From the IMG/VR virus record IMGVR_UViG_3300008120_000004, positions 62,001-126,000 of that record: a stretch of DNA of 64,000 bases; one strand, given 5' to 3'. Of this stretch, positions 52,978 through 60,087 are shown in pieces (the first letter of the stretch is position 1; every line of letters starts with the position of its first letter). The notes under the pieces were generated by a model. That model was not told the origin of the DNA. It did not search any database and worked only from the letters and a program-made list of their open reading frames with translations. This stretch comes from a virus. The translations under genes and the position numbers were made by a program.

Positions 52978-53211
52978 GTGGAAAACGCAGACATTATTAA
53001 CAAAATGATTGATGACATCCTTAACGGTGATAACGTTGAAGCAGAGCAAGGTGTTAATGCCGTTCTTGCTAGTAAGATTTCAAGTGCATTAGATGACCGT
53101 AAGGTAGAAATTGCACAATCAATTTACGGAAAAAAAGACGATGAAGTTTCGCAGGAAGACTTACCTGAAGAAGAAATTGATGTTGAAGAAGATACGACAG
53201 AGGTCGAGTAA
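52978..53211 (+). CDS. 67: Small acidic prohead core protein (gp67-like)
   Basis: 77 residues, starting at GTG after AAGGAGTTATT. The product is acidic, with a Glu/Asp-rich C-terminus (DLPEEEIDVEEDTTEVE). T4 has gene 67 (80 residues, acidic prohead core protein) at the same place, directly after gene 20. The match is one of size, charge and synteny; the sequence alone is too low in complexity for a firm call. Confidence 0.6.
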   Translation: MENADIINKMIDDILNGDNVEAEQGVNAVLASKISSALDDRKVEIAQSIYGKKDDEVSQEDLPEEEIDVEEDTTEVE

Positions 53212-53219
53212 AGGCTAAC

Positions 53220-54905
53220 ATGGCAATTAATTTTCTAAACCTTAGAGCATCGCTGGAAGAAAAAACATTAACACCAGCAGAAAAGAAAAAGCGCGAAGAA
53301 GTAGCTAAGGCTATTGAGCGTGAAAATCCAAACATGCCTATGGGTATGAAAATGGCTATTGCTACAAAGACAGCCAAGCGTGTTGCAGAAGAGACAAAAT
53401 ATTATTCTTTAGTACATAAAGCTACTAATAAGGTTTTAAGTACCCATAAAGATCTAGAATCCGCTAAAGACGAACACCGAGGTATGGATCAAGGTGAGCG
53501 AGCTCACTATCGTATTGCCACGTCAACTAAAGAACCAAAGACATGGAATATGAAAGAAGAGTTAGATGAATTAAATCAAATGACTCTCCAGCGTTATGCA
53601 TCTAAAGCTTATAGAGTTGGTATGCAAGGTGGTCCTAAATCAGCTAAGCATTTAGCTGGTGCACAAAGAGCAAAAGAAAAATTAAAGTATGGTGATTATA
53701 GCGAAGAAGTTGAACAAGTTGACGAGTTAAAACAGTCTACTGTTAAAAGTTATATGAACAAATCTATTTCAGACTTTGGTCATCAAAACTTTATGAGCCG
53801 TGTTGGTAAAGGCTCCGATAAAGAAACTGCTACCAGAAAAGCCAAGAATAGATCCCTAGGTATCGAACGAGCAAATAAAAAAGTTGTCGGCGAAGATTTA
53901 GAACAAGTCGATGAAGTCTCTAAGAAGACAGCCTTAAGTTATATTCAAAAGAAAGTATCTCAGATTGCAAAACGGCCTGGTGAAGCTATGTTATATACCA
54001 CCAAGATGACCGGTAAAGATTATTCGAATTTAAAAAAAGCATATAAGCGTGCTGGAGTTAAAGAAGAATTTGAAATTTCTGAAGCTTATACTGAAGACGA
54101 TATTGCCAATGGTGGTACAGTCATATACAAGCACCAAGGCAAACATTATATGAGCAAAGTTTCTCATAAAACAGGTGGTGGTGCCGGCACCAAAATTCAT
54201 ACTACATCATCCTTAGGTCATGTAGTACCTTTACATAACGTAGTTTCCACAGACGCTTCAGATTGGAACACTTATAAAAACAGACCTGTTAAAGAAGAAT
54301 TTGAACTTGACGAAGCCAGTCAGTTTCCATCTAAAGAGCATGCTATTAAATATGCTAAAGAAAAAGTAAAGACACATAAGGACTCCGACGATGGCATTGA
54401 AGTATATTCTATGCCTAGTGGTGGAGCTAGAGTAGTACATACTATGAATAGTCAAGGCCGTCAACAGGTATTAAAAGGTGGCGGTAAAAAAGTAACTACA
54501 GTTACACGCGAACAAGTTGAGTTAGATGAAGCTGGACCTTTTTCTTATGGTATGAAGCCTCCTAGAAAAGGTACCATAGCTTATAATGCTATGATGAAGC
54601 GTAAAGAGCAAGAAAAAGGTAAACAACCTATTGAACCAAAAGATCAAATGGTTGGTATAGCTAAAAAATTAACTAAAGAAGAAGACACTCACTATTGTGC
54701 CAAGCATGTATACTCAGAGCTGTTTGGTGAAGGTCAAGTTGTTGAAGGTGATCATGCTGAGCCAAATGAAGACGGTCACGTAGAGTGGTACAACGTACAA
54801 TTCGAACATGGTATTGAAAAAGTATTTACTGAAGATATCGAAATTATGATGGCAGAATATCATGCTAATCATAAACGCAAAAAGAGAATGACAAATGGCA
54901 GATAA
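53220..54905 (+). CDS. Modular prohead core / internal-head protein with repeated protease-like sites
   Basis: 561 residues in the place of T4 gene 68. It is a chain of small modules divided by acidic linkers ending in L/V/I-x-E: LDE 115-117, VDE 167-169, VDE 230-232, ISE 286-288, LDE 363-365, LDE 435-437, the last three followed by Ala. T4 gp21 cuts after Glu in such L/I-x-E sites. The modules after the first three linkers are related (D-E-L-x-x-x-T-x-x-x-Y-x-x-K, then a basic helical stretch); later modules look like small alpha/beta domains. The ends are basic (KRKKRMTNGR). It may be cut during maturation and leave basic peptides with the DNA. Cleavage is inferred. Confidence 0.65.
   Translation: MAINFLNLRASLEEKTLTPAEKKKREEVAKAIERENPNMPMGMKMAIATKTAKRVAEETKYYSLVHKATNKVLSTHKDLESAKDEHRGMDQGERAHYRIATSTKEPKTWNMKEELDELNQMTLQRYASKAYRVGMQGGPKSAKHLAGAQRAKEKLKYGDYSEEVEQVDELKQSTVKSYMNKSISDFGHQNFMSRVGKGSDKETATRKAKNRSLGIERANKKVVGEDLEQVDEVSKKTALSYIQKKVSQIAKRPGEAMLYTTKMTGKDYSNLKKAYKRAGVKEEFEISEAYTEDDIANGGTVIYKHQGKHYMSKVSHKTGGGAGTKIHTTSSLGHVVPLHNVVSTDASDWNTYKNRPVKEEFELDEASQFPSKEHAIKYAKEKVKTHKDSDDGIEVYSMPSGGARVVHTMNSQGRQQVLKGGGKKVTTVTREQVELDEAGPFSYGMKPPRKGTIAYNAMMKRKEQEKGKQPIEPKDQMVGIAKKLTKEEDTHYCAKHVYSELFGEGQVVEGDHAEPNEDGHVEWYNVQFEHGIEKVFTEDIEIMMAEYHANHKRKKRMTNGR
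53562..54068 (+). repeat. Three tandem DEL-xxx-T-xx-Y modules in the head-core protein
   Basis: Codons about 115-283 of the 561-residue gene encode three diverged repeats of roughly 50-60 residues. They start LDELNQMTLQRYASKA, VDELKQSTVKSYMNKS and VDEVSKKTALSYIQKK, each continuing into a Lys/Arg/Ala-rich helical segment. Confidence 0.6.
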
Positions 54906-55287
54906 ACATATTTTAAAAAATACTCGCAGACAAGCTGCGGTAAAAGTATCTGGCACCGGTAGTGCAACTATCAGTGTCCAAGAACTAGCGTATGGTGATC
55001 AAACTATCACTACAGCTAATCTTCAGTTAATGCTAACCGATGCGTCTTTTATGACATTAGCTAACGGTAATGTTACACGCAACGGTAACTTAATTTTAGT
55101 TATGCCAGCCGGTTCTGCTGATACTCTCACATTTACAAATGACCTAGGGGTTCATCTTAACGAACAAGCAAATGCTAACGTTGTAGTTAACCTAGGTGCG
55201 TCTGAAGGTGTCGTTATTCTTCAATTCTCTAAGGGTGATGGATACAACGATCCTAACAGACAAAATCAAGGACCAGGCTCACTATGA
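54895..55287 (+). CDS. Unknown beta-rich head-cluster protein
   Basis: 130 residues, overlapping the modular core gene by 11 bases and gp21 by 4. A polar N-terminus (MADKHILKNTRRQAAVKVSG) is followed by beta strands (SATISVQELAYGDQTITTANL; ITLVMPAGSAD-like; NVVVNLGASEGVVILQFSKGDG) and a Gly/Pro/Asn tail. It looks like a small Ig-like or jelly-roll protein. Located among prohead genes, it may be a capsid decoration or core accessory protein, but I do not recognise it. Confidence 0.6.
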   Translation: MADKHILKNTRRQAAVKVSGTGSATISVQELAYGDQTITTANLQLMLTDASFMTLANGNVTRNGNLILVMPAGSADTLTFTNDLGVHLNEQANANVVVNLGASEGVVILQFSKGDGYNDPNRQNQGPGSL

Positions 55288-55931
55288 AACTAATTACTGA
55301 AACAGTTCAGGACGTTAAGTTCCTTACCGAAGCTAGAGAAGACGGTAGAAAGAATTTTTACATCGAAGGTATCTTCGGTCAGTCCGATAAAGAAAATAAA
55401 AACGGTAGAATCTATGGCTCTAACTTAATGGAGCGTGAGGTCGGTAAGTATCAAGACCTTATTAACGAAAGACGTTCATTAGGTGAATTAGGTCATCCTC
55501 CTAATCCTTCCGTTAATTTAGATAAAGTATCACATTTAATTACCAAGTTAGAAATGAATGGTAAAGATGTGTATGGTAAGGCAAAAATTTTAGAAACTCC
55601 TATGGGTAATATTGCTCGTAATCTAATTGAGAACGAGGTTCGTTTAGGAGTATCTACGCGTGGTCTGGGTTCATTAAAAGCTAATAAACAAGGCGTTAAT
55701 GAAGTACAAGACGATTTTCATTTAGTTACAGTGGATATCGTTGCTGATCCTTCTGCACCAGATGCTTTTGTACAAGGCATTATGGAGTCTGCAGAGTGGA
55801 TTTTAGAAAACGGAGTTTGGAAAGCTGTACAAGTTGAACAAGCTCAGAAGGCGATTAAAAAGGCTTCAAAAACCGAATTAGCAGATACAAAATTGCGTGT
55901 TTTTGAATCATTTTTAAGAACTATCAAGTAA
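55284..55931 (+). CDS. 21: Prohead protease gp21
   Basis: 215 residues (T4 gp21: 212). A serine protease of the herpesvirus-assemblin-like group that matures the prohead by cutting scaffold and capsid proteins after L/I-x-E sites. Candidate catalytic residues are H71 in LGELGHPPN, S124 in LGVSTRG, and D151 or D155 in VDIVADPSAPD. The preceding blocks IEGIFGQSDKENKNGRIY (about 27-44) and LEMNGKDVYGKAKILETPMG are family signatures. It is directly upstream of the scaffold. Confidence 0.93.
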   Translation: MKLITETVQDVKFLTEAREDGRKNFYIEGIFGQSDKENKNGRIYGSNLMEREVGKYQDLINERRSLGELGHPPNPSVNLDKVSHLITKLEMNGKDVYGKAKILETPMGNIARNLIENEVRLGVSTRGLGSLKANKQGVNEVQDDFHLVTVDIVADPSAPDAFVQGIMESAEWILENGVWKAVQVEQAQKAIKKASKTELADTKLRVFESFLRTIK

Positions 55932-55980: not shown

Positions 55981-57084
55981 ATGTCAGTCGAAGCTAAAAT
56001 TAAAGAATTGCTATCTCGTGCAAACGAGCAGAAGCAATTGACTGAAGAGTCTGCAGAAAACCTAAATGCAGCTGGCTATGGTGATGCCGGCAGCAAAGCA
56101 GCTAGTAGCGCGAAGAAAGACACTTCTAAAGCTGGTCAGGCTGCCATTGCTGGTGATACCACTCAACCTAAGCAAGGTTCATCTGAAGATCCTTCCATGG
56201 AAAAACTAGACGATTTAGAGCCAGGTAAAACTGCTTCTTCTAAAATGTCTAAAGAGCCAAACACTCTTAACACAAAGGGTGATGCTAAGTCTGTAAAGAC
56301 TCAAGCAATGGAAGAAGAAGAACATGACGAAGAAGTTATCGTTGAAGAAGAGGAAGAAGCACTAGATGTTAGTGCTGAACTAAACTCTATCTTCGGTGAA
56401 GAACTATCAGAAGAATTTAAATCAAAAGCTACTTCTATTTTCGAAGCAGCAGTTATTGCAAGAGTTAATTCCGAAATGGATAAAGTAGTTGCAAAGCTAG
56501 AAGAGCAAGCAGCTGCTGAATTAGCAACATTTAAAGAGACAATCGTTGAGAAGGTTGACGGTTATCTTAATTATGTTGTTGAGCAATGGATGGAAGAAAA
56601 CCAAGTTGCTATTGACTCTGGTTTAAGAACAGAGATTGCTGAAGACTTTATTTCTGGTCTTAAGAACTTATTTGTTGAACATTACATCGAAGTACCTGAA
56701 GAGAAGTATGATGTGATGGATGAACTTCAGACTAAGACTGAAGAACTAGAAAGCAAGTTAAATGAATCTATTGATGCAAATATTGAGCTCGCAAAAGAAT
56801 TAGAAGAACTAAAAGCTTCTAAGATTTTTGAAGAGCAAACCAAAGGTTTAGCCGACACTGAAGTTGCAAAACTTAAGAAGTTAGTGGAAGGTATTGACTT
56901 TGGTTCAGAAGATCTCTACCGTGAGAAAATTTCAGTTATTAAAGAAAATTATTTCCCTAAAGCTGCAAAGAATTCTCCAGAGAAAATGCTCGTTGAAGAA
57001 AGTGGTACAACACCTACTTTCAACAGTAACGATCCAATGGCTAAGTACGTTCAGAGCTTATCAAGAACCGTCAAGTCACGTTAA
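55981..57084 (+). CDS. 22: Prohead scaffold protein gp22
   Basis: 367 residues (T4 gp22: 269). The main core protein that shapes the prohead and is degraded by gp21. A low-complexity, disordered N-terminal third (Ala/Ser/Lys and Glu, about 20-130) is followed by long helical Glu/Lys-rich stretches (LNSIFGEELSEEFKSKATSIFEA; VNSEMDKVVAKLEEQ; ELQTKTEELESKLNESI). The block VEQWMEENQVAIDSGLRTEIAEDFI (about 199-223) and the C-terminal PMAKYVQSLSRTV are the family landmarks. Several L/V-x-E spots (for example LVEE near 338) may be protease sites. Confidence 0.9.
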   Translation: MSVEAKIKELLSRANEQKQLTEESAENLNAAGYGDAGSKAASSAKKDTSKAGQAAIAGDTTQPKQGSSEDPSMEKLDDLEPGKTASSKMSKEPNTLNTKGDAKSVKTQAMEEEEHDEEVIVEEEEEALDVSAELNSIFGEELSEEFKSKATSIFEAAVIARVNSEMDKVVAKLEEQAAAELATFKETIVEKVDGYLNYVVEQWMEENQVAIDSGLRTEIAEDFISGLKNLFVEHYIEVPEEKYDVMDELQTKTEELESKLNESIDANIELAKELEELKASKIFEEQTKGLADTEVAKLKKLVEGIDFGSEDLYREKISVIKENYFPKAAKNSPEKMLVEESGTTPTFNSNDPMAKYVQSLSRTVKSR

Positions 57085-57123: not shown

Positions 57124-58455
57124 ATGTACCTATCAGAACAACTTCAGGAAAAGTGGGGCAAGATCCTAAACCACGAAGATCTTCCTGAAATTAAAGATCA
57201 ATATAAGAAGTCGGTTACCGCCGTTCTTCTTGAAAACCAAGAGAAAGCTCTTCGTGAAGAGCGTGCAATGTTGCAAGAAGCAGCACCTGCAAACAACATT
57301 TCTGACACAGCTGGTATCGACAAGTATGACCCAATTCTTATTGGTCTAGTTCGTCGTGCAATGCCTAACTTAATGGCATATGACATTTGCGGTGTTCAGC
57401 CAATGACTGGTCCTACAGGTCTAATTTTTGCAATGCGTTCCGTATACGGTAACGTTCGTACAGATTCAGGTCTAACTGAAGCTCTATACAACGAAGCTGA
57501 TACCGACTTCTCGTCTTCAGGTTACGATACAGCATACGCTGGTACAGCTAAGAACGGTTCACACACTGGTTCAAACCCAGTTGATGGTTCTTACACAACT
57601 GGTGGTGGTATGACCACAGCTGAAGCAGAAGCTTTAGGTGATGCTTCTACTAACAACTTCGGTTCAATGGCATTTGCTATTGACAAGACAACTGTTACAG
57701 CTCGTTCACGTGCTCTAAAAGCTGAGTACACTCTAGAATTAGCACAAGACTTAAAAGCAGTTCATGGTCTTGACGCTGAGTCAGAGTTATCAAACATTCT
57801 TTCACAAGAAATTATGTTTGAAATCAACCGTGAAGTAGTTCGTACAATCTACAAAGTTGCTAAGCCAGGTTCACCTGCTACAGCAACAGCTGGTACCTTT
57901 AACCTAGATGTTGACTCAAATGGCCGTTGGTCTGTTGAGCGCTTCAAGGGTCTCTTATTCAACATCGAGCGTGATGCTAATCACATCGGTCAAGACACCC
58001 GTAGAGGGAAAGGTAACTTCATCGTATGTTCAGCTGACGTAGCTTCTGCATTGTCAATGGCTGGCGTACTTGACTACGCACCTGCTCTATCAACTAACTT
58101 AAACGTTGATGACACAGGTAACACTTTTGCTGGTATCCTAAACGGTCGTTATCGTGTCTACATCGACCCATATTCAGCTAACCTAGGTGCTGCATCGCAG
58201 TTCTACGTTGTTGGTTATAAGGGTACTTCACCATATGACGCAGGTATGTTCTACTGCCCATATGTTCCTCTACAGATGGTTCGTGCAGTTGATCCTAGCA
58301 GCTTCCAGCCAAAGATTGGCTTCAAGACTCGTTACGGTATGATTGCTAACCCATATGTAACAACTAACGCTAATAGTGCAGTTGCAGATACAGATACATT
58401 TACTGCAAACCGTAACCAGTACTATCGTCGTACTAAGGTTGTAAACTTAATGTAA
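57124..58455 (+). CDS. 23: Major capsid protein gp23
   Basis: 443 residues (T4 gp23: 521). It forms the hexameric shell of the head. Seen: an N-terminal delta domain of about 52 residues ending MLQE|AAPANN, an ideal L-x-E gp21 site that would give a mature protein of about 391 residues; then PILIGLVRRAMPNLMAYDICGVQPMTGPTGLIFAMR (about 70-106), the core signature of gp23; and the C-terminus MVRAVDPSSFQPKIGFKTRYGM. Codon use is richer in C-ending codons than in the fibre genes, fitting high expression. No gp24 vertex paralogue is in this window. Confidence 0.96.
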   Translation: MYLSEQLQEKWGKILNHEDLPEIKDQYKKSVTAVLLENQEKALREERAMLQEAAPANNISDTAGIDKYDPILIGLVRRAMPNLMAYDICGVQPMTGPTGLIFAMRSVYGNVRTDSGLTEALYNEADTDFSSSGYDTAYAGTAKNGSHTGSNPVDGSYTTGGGMTTAEAEALGDASTNNFGSMAFAIDKTTVTARSRALKAEYTLELAQDLKAVHGLDAESELSNILSQEIMFEINREVVRTIYKVAKPGSPATATAGTFNLDVDSNGRWSVERFKGLLFNIERDANHIGQDTRRGKGNFIVCSADVASALSMAGVLDYAPALSTNLNVDDTGNTFAGILNGRYRVYIDPYSANLGAASQFYVVGYKGTSPYDAGMFYCPYVPLQMVRAVDPSSFQPKIGFKTRYGMIANPYVTTNANSAVADTDTFTANRNQYYRRTKVVNLM

Positions 58456-59175: not shown

Positions 59176-60087
59176 ATGGAAGTAGAAAATATGAGTAAGA
59201 ATCAAAGACAAATTCAGATCAACGTTGAAGAATTGCGTAAGAATAAATTCTTCATCGCCACTCCTTGTTATGGTGGTCAGTTAAACGAACCGTACTTCCG
59301 TTCTGTCATCAAGATGATGACATTCTTTAATCAGCATCAAGTACCTCTAGCATTTGGTACTATTGCTAACGAATCGCTAGTAACACGCGCACGTAATGTG
59401 CTAGTAGCTTACTTCCTTAACTCCGATTATACACATCTACTCTTCATCGATGCTGATATTGAGTTTCAAGTAGAAGATGTTCTTAAACTATACTACCATG
59501 ATAGAGATGTAGTGGTTGGTGCTTATCCTAAAAAGGGTGTTGCATGGCAGCGTATTAAAGAAACCATGCAGGATAGTAATTTTAAAGACAAGCAATTGTC
59601 TGATAAAGAGATTGCTGCCTTTGGTTCTGACTATGCTATTAACTTCAAGTTTGTAGATAAAGAGGCAAAGTCTGTTGCTGTAGATCGTGGAGTAATTAAA
59701 CTACATGATGCAGGGACCGGCTTTATGATGATTAAGAGAGACGCAATTCTTAAAATGATCAAAGCCTATCCTGAGCTAAGATACAACAACGATGTTGCTC
59801 TAGGTAATACTGATCTAGGTGATAATTTCTATGCCTTATTCGATACTATGATCGATCCTATTGATCGTCGTTATCTATCAGAAGATTATACCTTCTGTCG
59901 TCGTTGGCAAGAACTAGGTGGTGATATCTGGCTTGACCCTTCTATCTCGCTTAACCACTATGGTCACTTCTGCTTCCAGGGTAATCCTCAGGCTATCATT
60001 CAATTCGGGCCTCCTATTGAGACAACACAACCTGTTCGTCAAGATATTAAGACCATTGACCTCCCTGACGAGCTAGAGCGCGCTTAA
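59176..60087 (+). CDS. Glycosyltransferase-like protein (GT-A fold)
   Basis: 303 residues. KFFIATPCYGGQLNEPYFRSVIKM opens a GT-A nucleotide-sugar fold, followed by ESLVTRARNVLVAYFLNSDYTHLLFIDADIEF (in part), whose DAD (about residues 92-94) is the metal and sugar-nucleotide site. Further blocks are VVVGAYPKKGVAW, HDAGTGFMMIKRDAIL and SEDYTFCRRWQELGGDIWLD (an E/D pair near the catalytic region) with HYGH near the end. The acceptor (virion protein, DNA base or host surface) is unknown. Start ATG 59176 has GGAGTTATT before it. Richer in C-ending codons than its neighbours. Confidence 0.75.
   Translation: MEVENMSKNQRQIQINVEELRKNKFFIATPCYGGQLNEPYFRSVIKMMTFFNQHQVPLAFGTIANESLVTRARNVLVAYFLNSDYTHLLFIDADIEFQVEDVLKLYYHDRDVVVGAYPKKGVAWQRIKETMQDSNFKDKQLSDKEIAAFGSDYAINFKFVDKEAKSVAVDRGVIKLHDAGTGFMMIKRDAILKMIKAYPELRYNNDVALGNTDLGDNFYALFDTMIDPIDRRYLSEDYTFCRRWQELGGDIWLDPSISLNHYGHFCFQGNPQAIIQFGPPIETTQPVRQDIKTIDLPDELERA

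What the first reader, a model, noticed from the sequence alone, without database searches (positions are those of the whole stretch)
53220..54905. Head-core protein that looks like a polyprotein cut by the prohead protease
Seen: six acidic linkers, each ending L/V/I-x-E, divide 561 residues into small modules, three of them tandem repeats and others small alpha/beta-like. In three linkers Glu is followed by Ala. Known: T4 gp21 cuts after Glu in L/I-x-E motifs and creates internal peptides and injected internal proteins. The gene lies between gp67-like and gp21, where T4 keeps core genes. Inferred: maturation could release several separate basic proteins into the head, perhaps for injection with the DNA.
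Basis: partly seen in the sequence, partly recalled or inferred. Interest (0 to 1): 0.75.

Follow-up and report, generated by a model that had tools for sequence, protein, structure and literature searches.

The report
Shuffled-cassette phage head-core polyprotein
A virus of bacteria carries a head-interior protein built from interchangeable small units, most of them joined at the cutting motif of its own head protease, so one gene probably packs many small proteins into the virus head, and related viruses swap those units like cassettes.

Summary
The 561-aa protein (53220-54905) sits among gp20, gp67-like, gp21, gp22 and gp23 genes of a T4-like phage. All six glutamates end [LIV]-x-E and mark module seams. 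P1 is Glu in 106 of 106 start contexts of six module families, but other families (C, J, N) often lack a site at their start. The inferred gp23 site of the same phages is [LM]xE|[ALVTDG] in 41 of 41 N-termini. Some window modules share 84-93% DNA identity with relatives whose head genes share 68-81%, so cassettes appear to move laterally. A modular analogue and leader-led enzymes were found by others in cyanophage virions. Best reading: a capsid-targeted polyprotein cut by gp21 into small head proteins. Cutting and injection are not shown. Main rival: a core scaffold cut up for disposal, like T4 gp68.

The parts
52978..53211 (+). gp67-like prohead core protein gene (GTG start, 77 aa)
   Evidence: phrog_1064 'prohead' E 2.1e-6
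53220..54905 (+). the polyprotein gene, 561 aa
   Evidence: no PHROG match and no Pfam match above cut-off; 22 related IMG/VR loci
53220..53261 (+). residues 1-14, capsid-targeting-like leader MAINFLNLRASLEE| (relatives: MKTFKDLRFDLEE|, MKTLKELRE|)
   Evidence: contexts; T4 ipII/ipIII N-terminus MKTYQEFIAEA and ipI MKTFKEF read from the T4 record
53262..53393 (+). module A, residues 15-58 (helical)
   Evidence: 54 distinct start contexts, P1 Glu 54, P3 LIVM 53; block mean pLDDT 91-96 for residues 21-60
53394..53570 (+). module B, residues 59-117; ends LDE|L
   Evidence: DNA 92.7% identical to L016 over residues 60-114
53571..53726 (+). module T1, residues 118-169 (repeat 1); ends VDE|L
   Evidence: repeat HMM
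53727..53915 (+). module T2, residues 170-232 (repeat 2); ends VDE|V
   Evidence: repeat HMM
53916..54083 (+). module T3, residues 233-288 (repeat 3); ends ISE|A
   Evidence: repeat HMM; DNA 85-89% identical to L004, L005, L016, blocks ending at residues 283-285
54084..54314 (+). module K, residues 289-365; ends LDE|A
   Evidence: the only block of this gene shared at DNA level with L006, residues 280-363, 84.4%
54315..54530 (+). module G, residues 366-437; ends LDE|A
   Evidence: DNA 87.6% identical to L016 over residues 358-438
54531..54683 (+). module H, residues 438-488; no clean site at its end here
   Evidence: 5 start contexts, all with P1 Glu and P3 LIVM; found in otherwise different polyproteins L019, L020, L021
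54684..54902 (+). module J, residues 489-561, predicted five-stranded SH3/Tudor/KOW-like barrel with invariant His and Cys
   Evidence: alignment A2, model mean pLDDT 76, weak fold matches Z up to 4.9; [LIVMF]xE within 8 residues before its start in only 10 of 28 contexts
54895..55287 (+). 130-aa unknown ORF, syntenic in many relatives
55284..55931 (+). gp21 prohead protease (Peptidase_S77), the presumed cutter
   Evidence: phrog_207 E 1e-75; PF03420 E 6.1e-34
55981..57084 (+). gp22 scaffold
   Evidence: phrog_237, PF25623
57271..57279 (+). inferred gp21 site of gp23, residues 50-52, LQE|A
   Evidence: T4 gp23 reads FLTE|A at residue 65
57124..58455 (+). gp23 major capsid protein
   Evidence: phrog_138, PF07068

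Best explanation
The gene encodes a capsid-targeted polyprotein. A short N-terminal leader like the T4 capsid targeting sequence brings the whole chain into the prohead core. When gp21 becomes active it cuts after Glu in [LIVM]-x-E seams and releases the leader and seven or eight small proteins of roughly 5-14 kDa inside the head. Some or all stay with the DNA and enter the host at infection. The modules are evolutionary cassettes: related phages gain, lose, reorder and exchange them as DNA blocks that tend to begin and end at the seams, because a cassette bounded by protease sites is released correctly whatever its neighbours. Shown here by comparison: module boundaries at the motif, site conservation at the starts of several module families, match to the phages' gp23 site, DNA-level exchange in specific cases, standalone and fused forms of the same module. 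Inferred: cutting by gp21, retention, injection, function of the pieces.
For: Synteny with prohead genes in IMG/VR relatives. 23 module orders among 29 non-redundant syntenic proteins. Protein homology breakpoints: 120 of 486 within 1 aa of an [LIVM]xE bond, random 7.0+-1.2% (highest of 200 draws 10.3%); [LIVM]xD, xK and xS not enriched, xA below random; HSP ends peak exactly at the bond. Without HSPs over module A: 57 of 116 within 3 aa, expected 16.9%, 20 of 23 proteins above their own expectation (syntenic set). DNA breakpoints: 540 of 844 within 9 nt, random 17.1+-1.3%. Junction logo: P1 Glu 106 of 106 in six families where it was not required, P3 LIVM 133 of 147 including the repeat family; background Glu 8.2%, LIVM 19.1%. 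Codons differ (43 distinct 9-mers in 53 module A contexts), so the peptide is kept, not a DNA repeat. gp23 N-termini: [LM]xE in 41 of 41. Standalone versus fused: module C as a 75-aa ORF with its own leader (L150 7164-7391); an R/K-rich module as single ORFs and inside long polyproteins, with a Glu one to four residues before its start in 22 of 22 contexts and hydrophobic P3 in 17, by eye. Published virion MS (Table 3 of PMC10665884): S-CREM2 gp160, a leader-led protein with modules joined at LxE, and gp154 cytidylyltransferase with leader MKNFSSFLTE|A, are in the virion (sequences).
Against: No peptide or cleavage data for this phage. T4 gp68, at the same gene position, is degraded by gp21 to small peptides that presumably escape (PMC9958956, passages). 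Modules C, J and N mostly lack an adjacent site at their starts: [LIVMF]xE within the 8 residues before the HMM start in 11 of 35, 10 of 28 and 4 of 14 contexts (O 7 of 11, D 4 of 6); the H/J seam of the window itself lacks it. The starts of the six families with 106 of 106 Glu were placed by me at the presumed seam from a few proteins, and the anchor of K (3 contexts) was moved by one residue after inspection. P1' Lys at module A and Thr at module I: Lys was not seen at the gp23 site, Thr in 4 of 41. The motif occurs inside modules too. 8 of 32 module I contexts lack hydrophobic P3. E without hydrophobic P3 is also enriched at breakpoints. Breakpoints are not independent. S-CREM2 gp160 shares one HMM module (N) with the scanned set and, by eye, a C-terminal module with L021: an analogue, not an orthologue.
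Confidence: 0.62

Rival explanations
1. A disposable core scaffold. The protein fills the prohead core like T4 gp67/gp68/gp22; gp21 cuts it at the seams so that pieces can leave the head and make room for DNA. Modules are interchangeable because only bulk and cuttability matter.
For: Gene position equals T4 gene 68; T4 gp22, gp67 and gp68 are cut by gp21 into small peptides that presumably escape (PMC9958956 passages; PMC9026906 passages); the shortest relatives have only module A plus C (121 aa); not each module has its own site.
Against: Modules keep detailed sequence over great distance (module J: 11 invariant columns in 28 rows, including His and Cys); polyproteins of the same kind elsewhere carry a nucleotidyltransferase domain (L075 by match to annotated cytidyltransferases; L020 by eye) and a P-loop motif (L075, by eye); a modular analogue is found in mature virions.
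Confidence: 0.23
2. An uncut beads-on-a-string internal protein. Acidic linkers are only flexible spacers and convenient recombination points.
For: No cleavage data; acidic linkers are common spacers; the gp160 MS coverage in S-CREM2 does not show cleavage; C, J and N starts often lack the motif.
Against: P1 Glu and P3 hydrophobic are held in several families while P2, P4-P8 and codons vary; homology ends exactly at the bond, and [LIVM]xD is not enriched though equally acidic.
Confidence: 0.1
3. The conserved linkers are DNA-level recombination sites and the amino-acid motif is a by-product.
For: Cassettes appear to move as DNA.
Against: P3-P1 codons are diverse: 43 distinct 9-mers in 53 module A contexts, GAA 36 and GAG 17 at P1; 29 in 31 for module I.
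Confidence: 0.03

Closest known systems
T4 gp67/gp68/gp22 prohead core proteins
   Same: Gene position between portal and protease genes; T4 gp22, gp67 and gp68 are degraded by gp21 into small peptides (PMC9958956, passages); gp21 cuts after L/I-x-E (PMC9026906, passages)
   Different: T4 gp68 is 141 aa with no detected sequence relation to this protein; the passages read do not describe it as cassette-built; here modules differ between phages
T4 internal proteins IPI, IPII, IPIII and Alt with capsid targeting sequence
   Same: Short leader ending in hydrophobic-x-Glu, removed by gp21; small, often basic head proteins (PMC9026906, passages)
   Different: One cargo per gene in T4 (Alt is also trimmed at its C-terminus); here many modules follow one leader with a site at many seams
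Polyvalent proteins of phages and conjugative elements (PMC5512222, passages)
   Same: Several cargo domains in one chain, thought to be packaged and injected; likened there to viral polyproteins
   Different: There embedded peptidase domains are proposed to release the parts; here no embedded peptidase was recognised and the head-protease motif lies at the seams, with very small modules
PhiKZ and SPN3US head proteins cut by the prohead protease (PMC10052503, abstract and introduction)
   Same: Many head proteins cut after Glu by a gp21-related protease (A-x-E in SPN3US)
   Different: Described there as maturation cuts in head proteins, not as interchangeable cassettes
Cyanophage T4-GC119 / Syn9 gp114
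   Same: Modular protein with mostly LxE-ended linkers and different module sets in Syn9, S-P4, S-CAM22, S-RIM50, Syn19 and S-RS29; module C in S-RIM50
   Different: Lies near the small terminase gene, mostly other modules, some seams not LxE (QME, TNE); annotated as hypothetical or structural protein

Membership tests
T4 gp68 family | gene between 67 and 21 | tested here: met
   order gp67-like, this gene, u130, gp21; T4 order 67-68-21; one extra ORF here
T4 gp68 family | sequence homology to T4 gp68 | tested here: not met
   phmmer of T4 gp68 against the ORFs of L001-L169, G000 stretches and ten named proteins, E up to 10, hits only itself; distant homology not excluded
T4-type internal protein with CTS | N-terminal leader ending in hydrophobic-x-Glu | tested here: met
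   SLEE|K in window, MKTFKDL..LEE| in L005; T4 N-termini read; targeting itself untested
T4-type internal protein with CTS | present in mature virion and injected | not testable with these tools
   only analogues in S-CREM2 and related enzymes in other cyanophages have virion MS
gp21 substrate | L/I-x-E site matching the phage's own protease | tested here: met
   six seams [LIV]xE|[LVA]; gp23 [LM]xE|[ALVTDG] in 41 of 41 N-termini
gp21 substrate | observed cleavage | not testable with these tools
   no proteomics for this phage
Polyprotein (modules separated by protease sites) | sites coincide with module boundaries more than chance | tested here: met
Polyprotein (modules separated by protease sites) | every module has a site at its start | tested here: not met
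   true for A, I, H, G, L, K contexts; not for C 11/35, J 10/28, N 4/14; H/J seam of the window lacks one
Polyprotein (modules separated by protease sites) | modules also exist as separate proteins | tested here: met
   module C alone in L150; R/K-rich module alone and fused
Polyvalent protein | embedded peptidase or multiple recognised effector domains | tested here: inconclusive
   no Pfam/PHROG domain in P0001 above cut-off; relative L075 matches annotated cytidyltransferases

The most novel reading that the evidence does not exclude
A combinatorial cargo locus: T4-like phages of many environments use one leader-led gene as a multiple-slot carrier, trade protease-flanked cassettes at DNA level, and so change within one recombination event the set of small effector proteins that each virion injects, a protein-level counterpart of a gene cassette array read out by the head protease.
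Probability: 0.4. Interest if true: 0.9.

Novelty: new variant of a known kind. Interest (0 to 1): 0.78.

Why it matters
It would explain a class of unannotated phage head proteins, turn 'hypothetical virion proteins' of cyanophage proteomes into predicted lists of processed pieces, give a rule for finding injected small effectors (cassettes bounded by the head-protease motif behind a capsid leader), and show how T4-like phages can renew their injected protein set faster than gene by gene.

Tried and rejected
Motif counting: the number of LxE motifs in P0001 is not unusual (2.1 per 100 aa; gp21 5.1, gp22 4.4), so counts were dropped as evidence and position was tested instead.

Extending the junction logo to all module families: it fails for C, J and N and holds partly for D and O; only A, I, H, G, L, K and the repeat T are counted in the logo. 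Rows dropped there: domains whose HMM alignment started after position 3 or lay at the very N-terminus (among them an L-like stretch of L020 without Glu before it). In the repeat family Glu was part of the anchor, so those 41 contexts say nothing about P1. Families are not all independent: consensus sequences of D and L match (E 5e-5), D and F, H and O weakly (E 0.006-0.01); among the counted families only T and H reach E 0.05.

Whole-protein AlphaFold2 with a fragment alignment gave a poor model (mean pLDDT 59); only module A is well predicted. I draw nothing from the rest. The module J model (pLDDT 76) gave weak SH3/Tudor/KOW matches: no Foldseek match at E 0.001 or less, best VIA Z 4.9 to a PcrA/UvrD Tudor domain over 47 residues, rmsd 1.8. 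A fold suggestion only.

Homology to T4 gp68: no hit. The window's match to S-H38 is module J only.

Co-variation of the seam motif with the protease in the QxE group (L150, L151, L156, L157, L159): gp23 was not found in those records (8 of 35 records searched had a match, none of these), so untested; other seams of L150 read INE or VSE, which speaks against a simple change of specificity. gp23-like N-termini of five other module-bearing records read ALFE, LLGE, ALFE, SLFE and FLAE (L184-L188); two divergent major capsid proteins (L190, L191) were not assignable.

First HSP test used all HSPs of E 1e-4 or better without merging: 4568 breakpoints, 19.9% within 2 aa, random 11.1%; kept as a lower bound. 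At identity 40 or more the fraction within 1 aa is 15.3%, random 6.7%. E without hydrophobic P3 is also enriched near breakpoints (23.5% against 16.9%; 30.7% against 15.0% within 3 nt), as expected from the acidic linkers.

The median DNA identity excess of shared blocks over backbone genes is small (4.6 points over 552 blocks in 371 pairs; 142 at +8 or more, 7 at -8 or less), and strong conservation of module A explains part of it, so lateral transfer rests mainly on the specific cases.

Literature: ten searches; the listings, several of them cut at 10 to 20 papers, showed no title or abstract start that describes a cassette-built head polyprotein in T4-like phages. Supplementary tables and subscription papers could not be read.

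Full report
WHAT IS THERE. The window lies in a 165-kb virus record with the T4 head gene order: tail sheath and tube genes (gp18 by annotated matches, gp19 by position), gp20, gp67-like, the gene in question, a 130-aa unknown ORF, gp21 protease, gp22, gp23. The gene 53220-54905 codes for 561 aa and has no PHROG match and no Pfam match above cut-off. Residues 113-156, 165-209 and 228-274 are copies of one repeat.

RELATIVES. A search of IMG/VR with the whole protein gave 22 loci; searches with three module sequences gave 80 (the best 80 of 228), 21 and 47 rows, with overlaps; 163 loci were held then. Of 82 distinct complete ORFs that match P0001 best, 50 stand next to gp67/gp20 or next to u130/gp21; they are 121 to 751 aa long. 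The other 32 lie elsewhere in their contigs. In the cultured-phage collection P0001 itself finds only S-H38, in two records of one phage, through its last module.

MODULES MOVE. With 14 module families (A-D, F-L, N, O and the repeat T), 29 non-redundant syntenic proteins show 23 different orders, for example window A-B-T-T-T-K-G-H-J, L004 A-C-D-T-F-G-H-I-J, L011 I-L-A-J, short form A-C. Modules A, C and T each have six to eight kinds of right-hand neighbour, unassigned stretches counted as one kind.

THE SEAMS AND THE MOTIF. To avoid circularity I took breakpoints from homology alone. In all-against-all BLASTP of 105 non-redundant module proteins, HSPs of identity 60% or more gave 486 merged interior breakpoints in 95 proteins; 120 (24.7%) lie within one residue of an [LIVM]xE bond against 7.0+-1.2% for random positions in the same proteins (maximum of 200 draws 10.3%). 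Decoys: [LIVM]xD 3.3% against 3.6%, xK 9.3 against 9.0, xS 3.7 against 4.3, xA 1.4 against 3.3; Glu without hydrophobic P3 23.5 against 16.9. HSP ends peak at the bond itself (59 at offset 0, 23 at +1), starts at -1 (29) and -3 (33). Removing HSPs over module A leaves 184 of 465 within three residues (expected 14.5%; 55 of 81 proteins above their own expectation), and 57 of 116 (expected 16.9%; 20 of 23) in the syntenic set. At DNA level, 844 breakpoints in 29 genes: 251 within 3 nt (random 6.5+-0.8%) and 540 within 9 nt (17.1+-1.3%, maximum 20.3%); four decoys fall below random, Glu without hydrophobic P3 is about twofold enriched. These breakpoints share ancestry and are not independent trials.

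THE JUNCTION LOGO AND ITS LIMITS. Over 147 distinct module-start contexts of seven families, P3 is L 67, I 31, V 28, M 7 (133 of 147). In the 41 repeat contexts Glu was part of the anchor; in the other six families (A 54, I 32, L 9, H 5, G 3, K 3) P1 is Glu in 106 of 106. Background in these proteins: Glu 8.2%, LIVM 19.1%. I had placed the start of each seed at the presumed seam, and shifted K by one residue; the other contexts are the test. Eight of 32 module I contexts have other P3 residues, five of them Gln, from one group of contigs. The pattern is not universal: before modules C, J and N an [LIVMF]xE is found within eight residues in only 11 of 35, 10 of 28 and 4 of 14 contexts (D 4 of 6, O 7 of 11). 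So some modules travel without a site of their own in front, as H-J does in the window. Codons at P3-P1 are varied (43 different 9-mers in 53 module A contexts), so what is conserved is the peptide.

IT MATCHES THIS PROTEASE. The T4 rule is L/I-x-E (PMC9026906, passages). In gp23 of these phages the inferred propeptide end reads [LM]xE in 41 of 41 N-termini (Leu 37, Met 4), with Leu 18, Ala 12, Val 5, Thr 4, Asp 1, Gly 1 after it; a 42nd hit is a C-terminal fragment; the window's own is LQE|A. T4 gp23 has FLTE|A at residue 65. The six seams have Leu, Leu, Val, Ala, Ala, Ala at P1'. Module A (Lys) is unlike the gp23 site, module I (Thr) is within its range.

LEADERS. The N-terminus resembles capsid targeting leaders: MAINFLNLRASLEE|K here, MKTFKDLRFDLEE|K in L005, MKTLKELRE|K in L073, against MKTYQEFIAEA in T4 ipII and ipIII and MKTFKEF in ipI. 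When module A stands inside a longer chain it often still carries a leader-like stretch. Elsewhere in the window's own genome, leaders of this kind head a protein that by eye is nucleotidyltransferase-like (MAFKEYLKE|A) and a 396-aa protein (MNFKQYLTE|A).

CASSETTES ALSO LIVE ALONE. Module C is a complete 75-aa ORF with leader MYTFKQLRE|A in L150. An Arg/Lys-rich module of about 100 aa forms most of single ORFs of 136-188 aa in some contigs and part of chains of 333-1010 aa in others; a Glu stands one to four residues before its start in 22 of 22 distinct contexts, with hydrophobic P3 in 17, not in 4, one cut off (counted by eye).

DNA EXCHANGE. Window modules share 92.7% DNA identity with L016 (residues 60-114), 85-89% with L004, L005 and L016 (about 225-285), 87.6% with L016 (358-438), 86.0% with L004 (358-488) and 84.4% with L006 (280-363), while head genes of the same pairs share 68-74% (gp23 of L006 81%). 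Not all shared blocks are so high: module J runs at backbone level or near it (L005 71%, L004 and L016 inside a 73-74% block), K in L041 is 72%. Over all pairs the excess is modest (median 4.6 points).

VIRION EVIDENCE FROM OTHERS. In S-CREM2, whose virion proteome is Table 3 of PMC10665884 (section read), gp160 (7 unique peptides, 13.1% coverage), gp154 (3) and gp155 (5) were detected. Their sequences show MSSLSE|, MKNFSSFLTE|A and a run ending INLRE|G; gp160 joins module N (E 2.6e-5) and a Cys/Lys-rich module, seen by eye also in L021, through LxE seams. Cytidylyltransferase or NMNAT-like proteins were found in virions of S-SM1 (PMC3037559 section 26), S-SCSM1 (PMC9602691 passages) and S-SZBM1 (PMC9146016 section 16); I did not look at their leaders. 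The passages I read do not mention cleavage of these. Relatives of gp160, Syn9 gp114 / T4-GC119 and others, show module gain and loss among cultured cyanophages, with seams that are mostly but not always LxE.

HOW IT PROBABLY WORKS. Leader-guided entry into the core, gp21 cutting at seams, retention of at least some pieces with the DNA, delivery to the host. The first two steps are supported by comparison, the last two are inference from T4 and from cyanophage virion data. The strongest rival is a disposable scaffold as T4 gp68 is described (PMC9958956 passages); detailed conservation of modules, enzyme-bearing relatives and virion detection of an analogue speak against it but do not exclude it for this protein.

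NOVELTY. Prohead protease, capsid leaders, fragmented core proteins and multi-domain injected 'polyvalent' proteins (PMC5512222 passages) are known. The literature searches named in Tried and rejected listed no description of a head polyprotein built of exchangeable cassettes bounded by head-protease sites. I therefore call it a new variant of a known kind.

Noticed in passing
L020 4417-6855 and L075 3778-6759: Polyproteins of 812 and 993 aa that combine a nucleotidyltransferase-like domain, an Arg/Lys-rich module and other modules (H in L020, A in L075); L075 also has a P-loop (GGPGSGKS) motif. HTVC008M, phiM12 and Melnitz phages match parts of L075.
   Followed up: partly
L150, L151, L156, L157, L159: Contigs whose seam before module I reads QxE instead of LxE, while other seams in the same protein (L150) read INE or VSE.
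   Followed up: partly
L171 10051-19258 (G000 about 29.5-38.8 kb, outside the window): Second cluster of leader-led genes in the window's own genome: nucleotidyltransferase-like (400 aa), 396-aa protein, MKTFKQVRE-led 211-aa protein, Arg/Lys-rich protein.
   Followed up: partly
54895-55287: 130-aa ORF between the polyprotein gene and gp21, syntenic in many relatives, no PHROG match and no Pfam match above cut-off; function unknown.
   Followed up: no
54684-54902: Module J predicted as five-stranded SH3/Tudor/KOW-like barrel with invariant His and Cys; weak resemblance to UvrD Tudor and NusG KOW domains makes an RNA polymerase contact conceivable.
   Followed up: partly
L177-L182 (Syn9 gp114, S-P4, S-CAM22, S-RIM50, Syn19, S-RS29): Cyanophage T4-GC119-type proteins near the small terminase gene are also module mosaics, with cassettes such as DACYKKVKSRYSVWPSAYASGALVKC and NKSGDSSLRDWF.
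   Followed up: partly
L006 5932-8187, last about 46 residues: This C-terminal module (O) matches small phage records (20-58 kb) of cyanobacteria, SAR11 and Roseobacter hosts at 65-87% identity (rows listed), so cassettes may cross phage families.
   Followed up: no
window 59176-60087: 303-aa ORF after the gp23 region that looks like a glycosyltransferase (by eye, no family search run).
   Followed up: no
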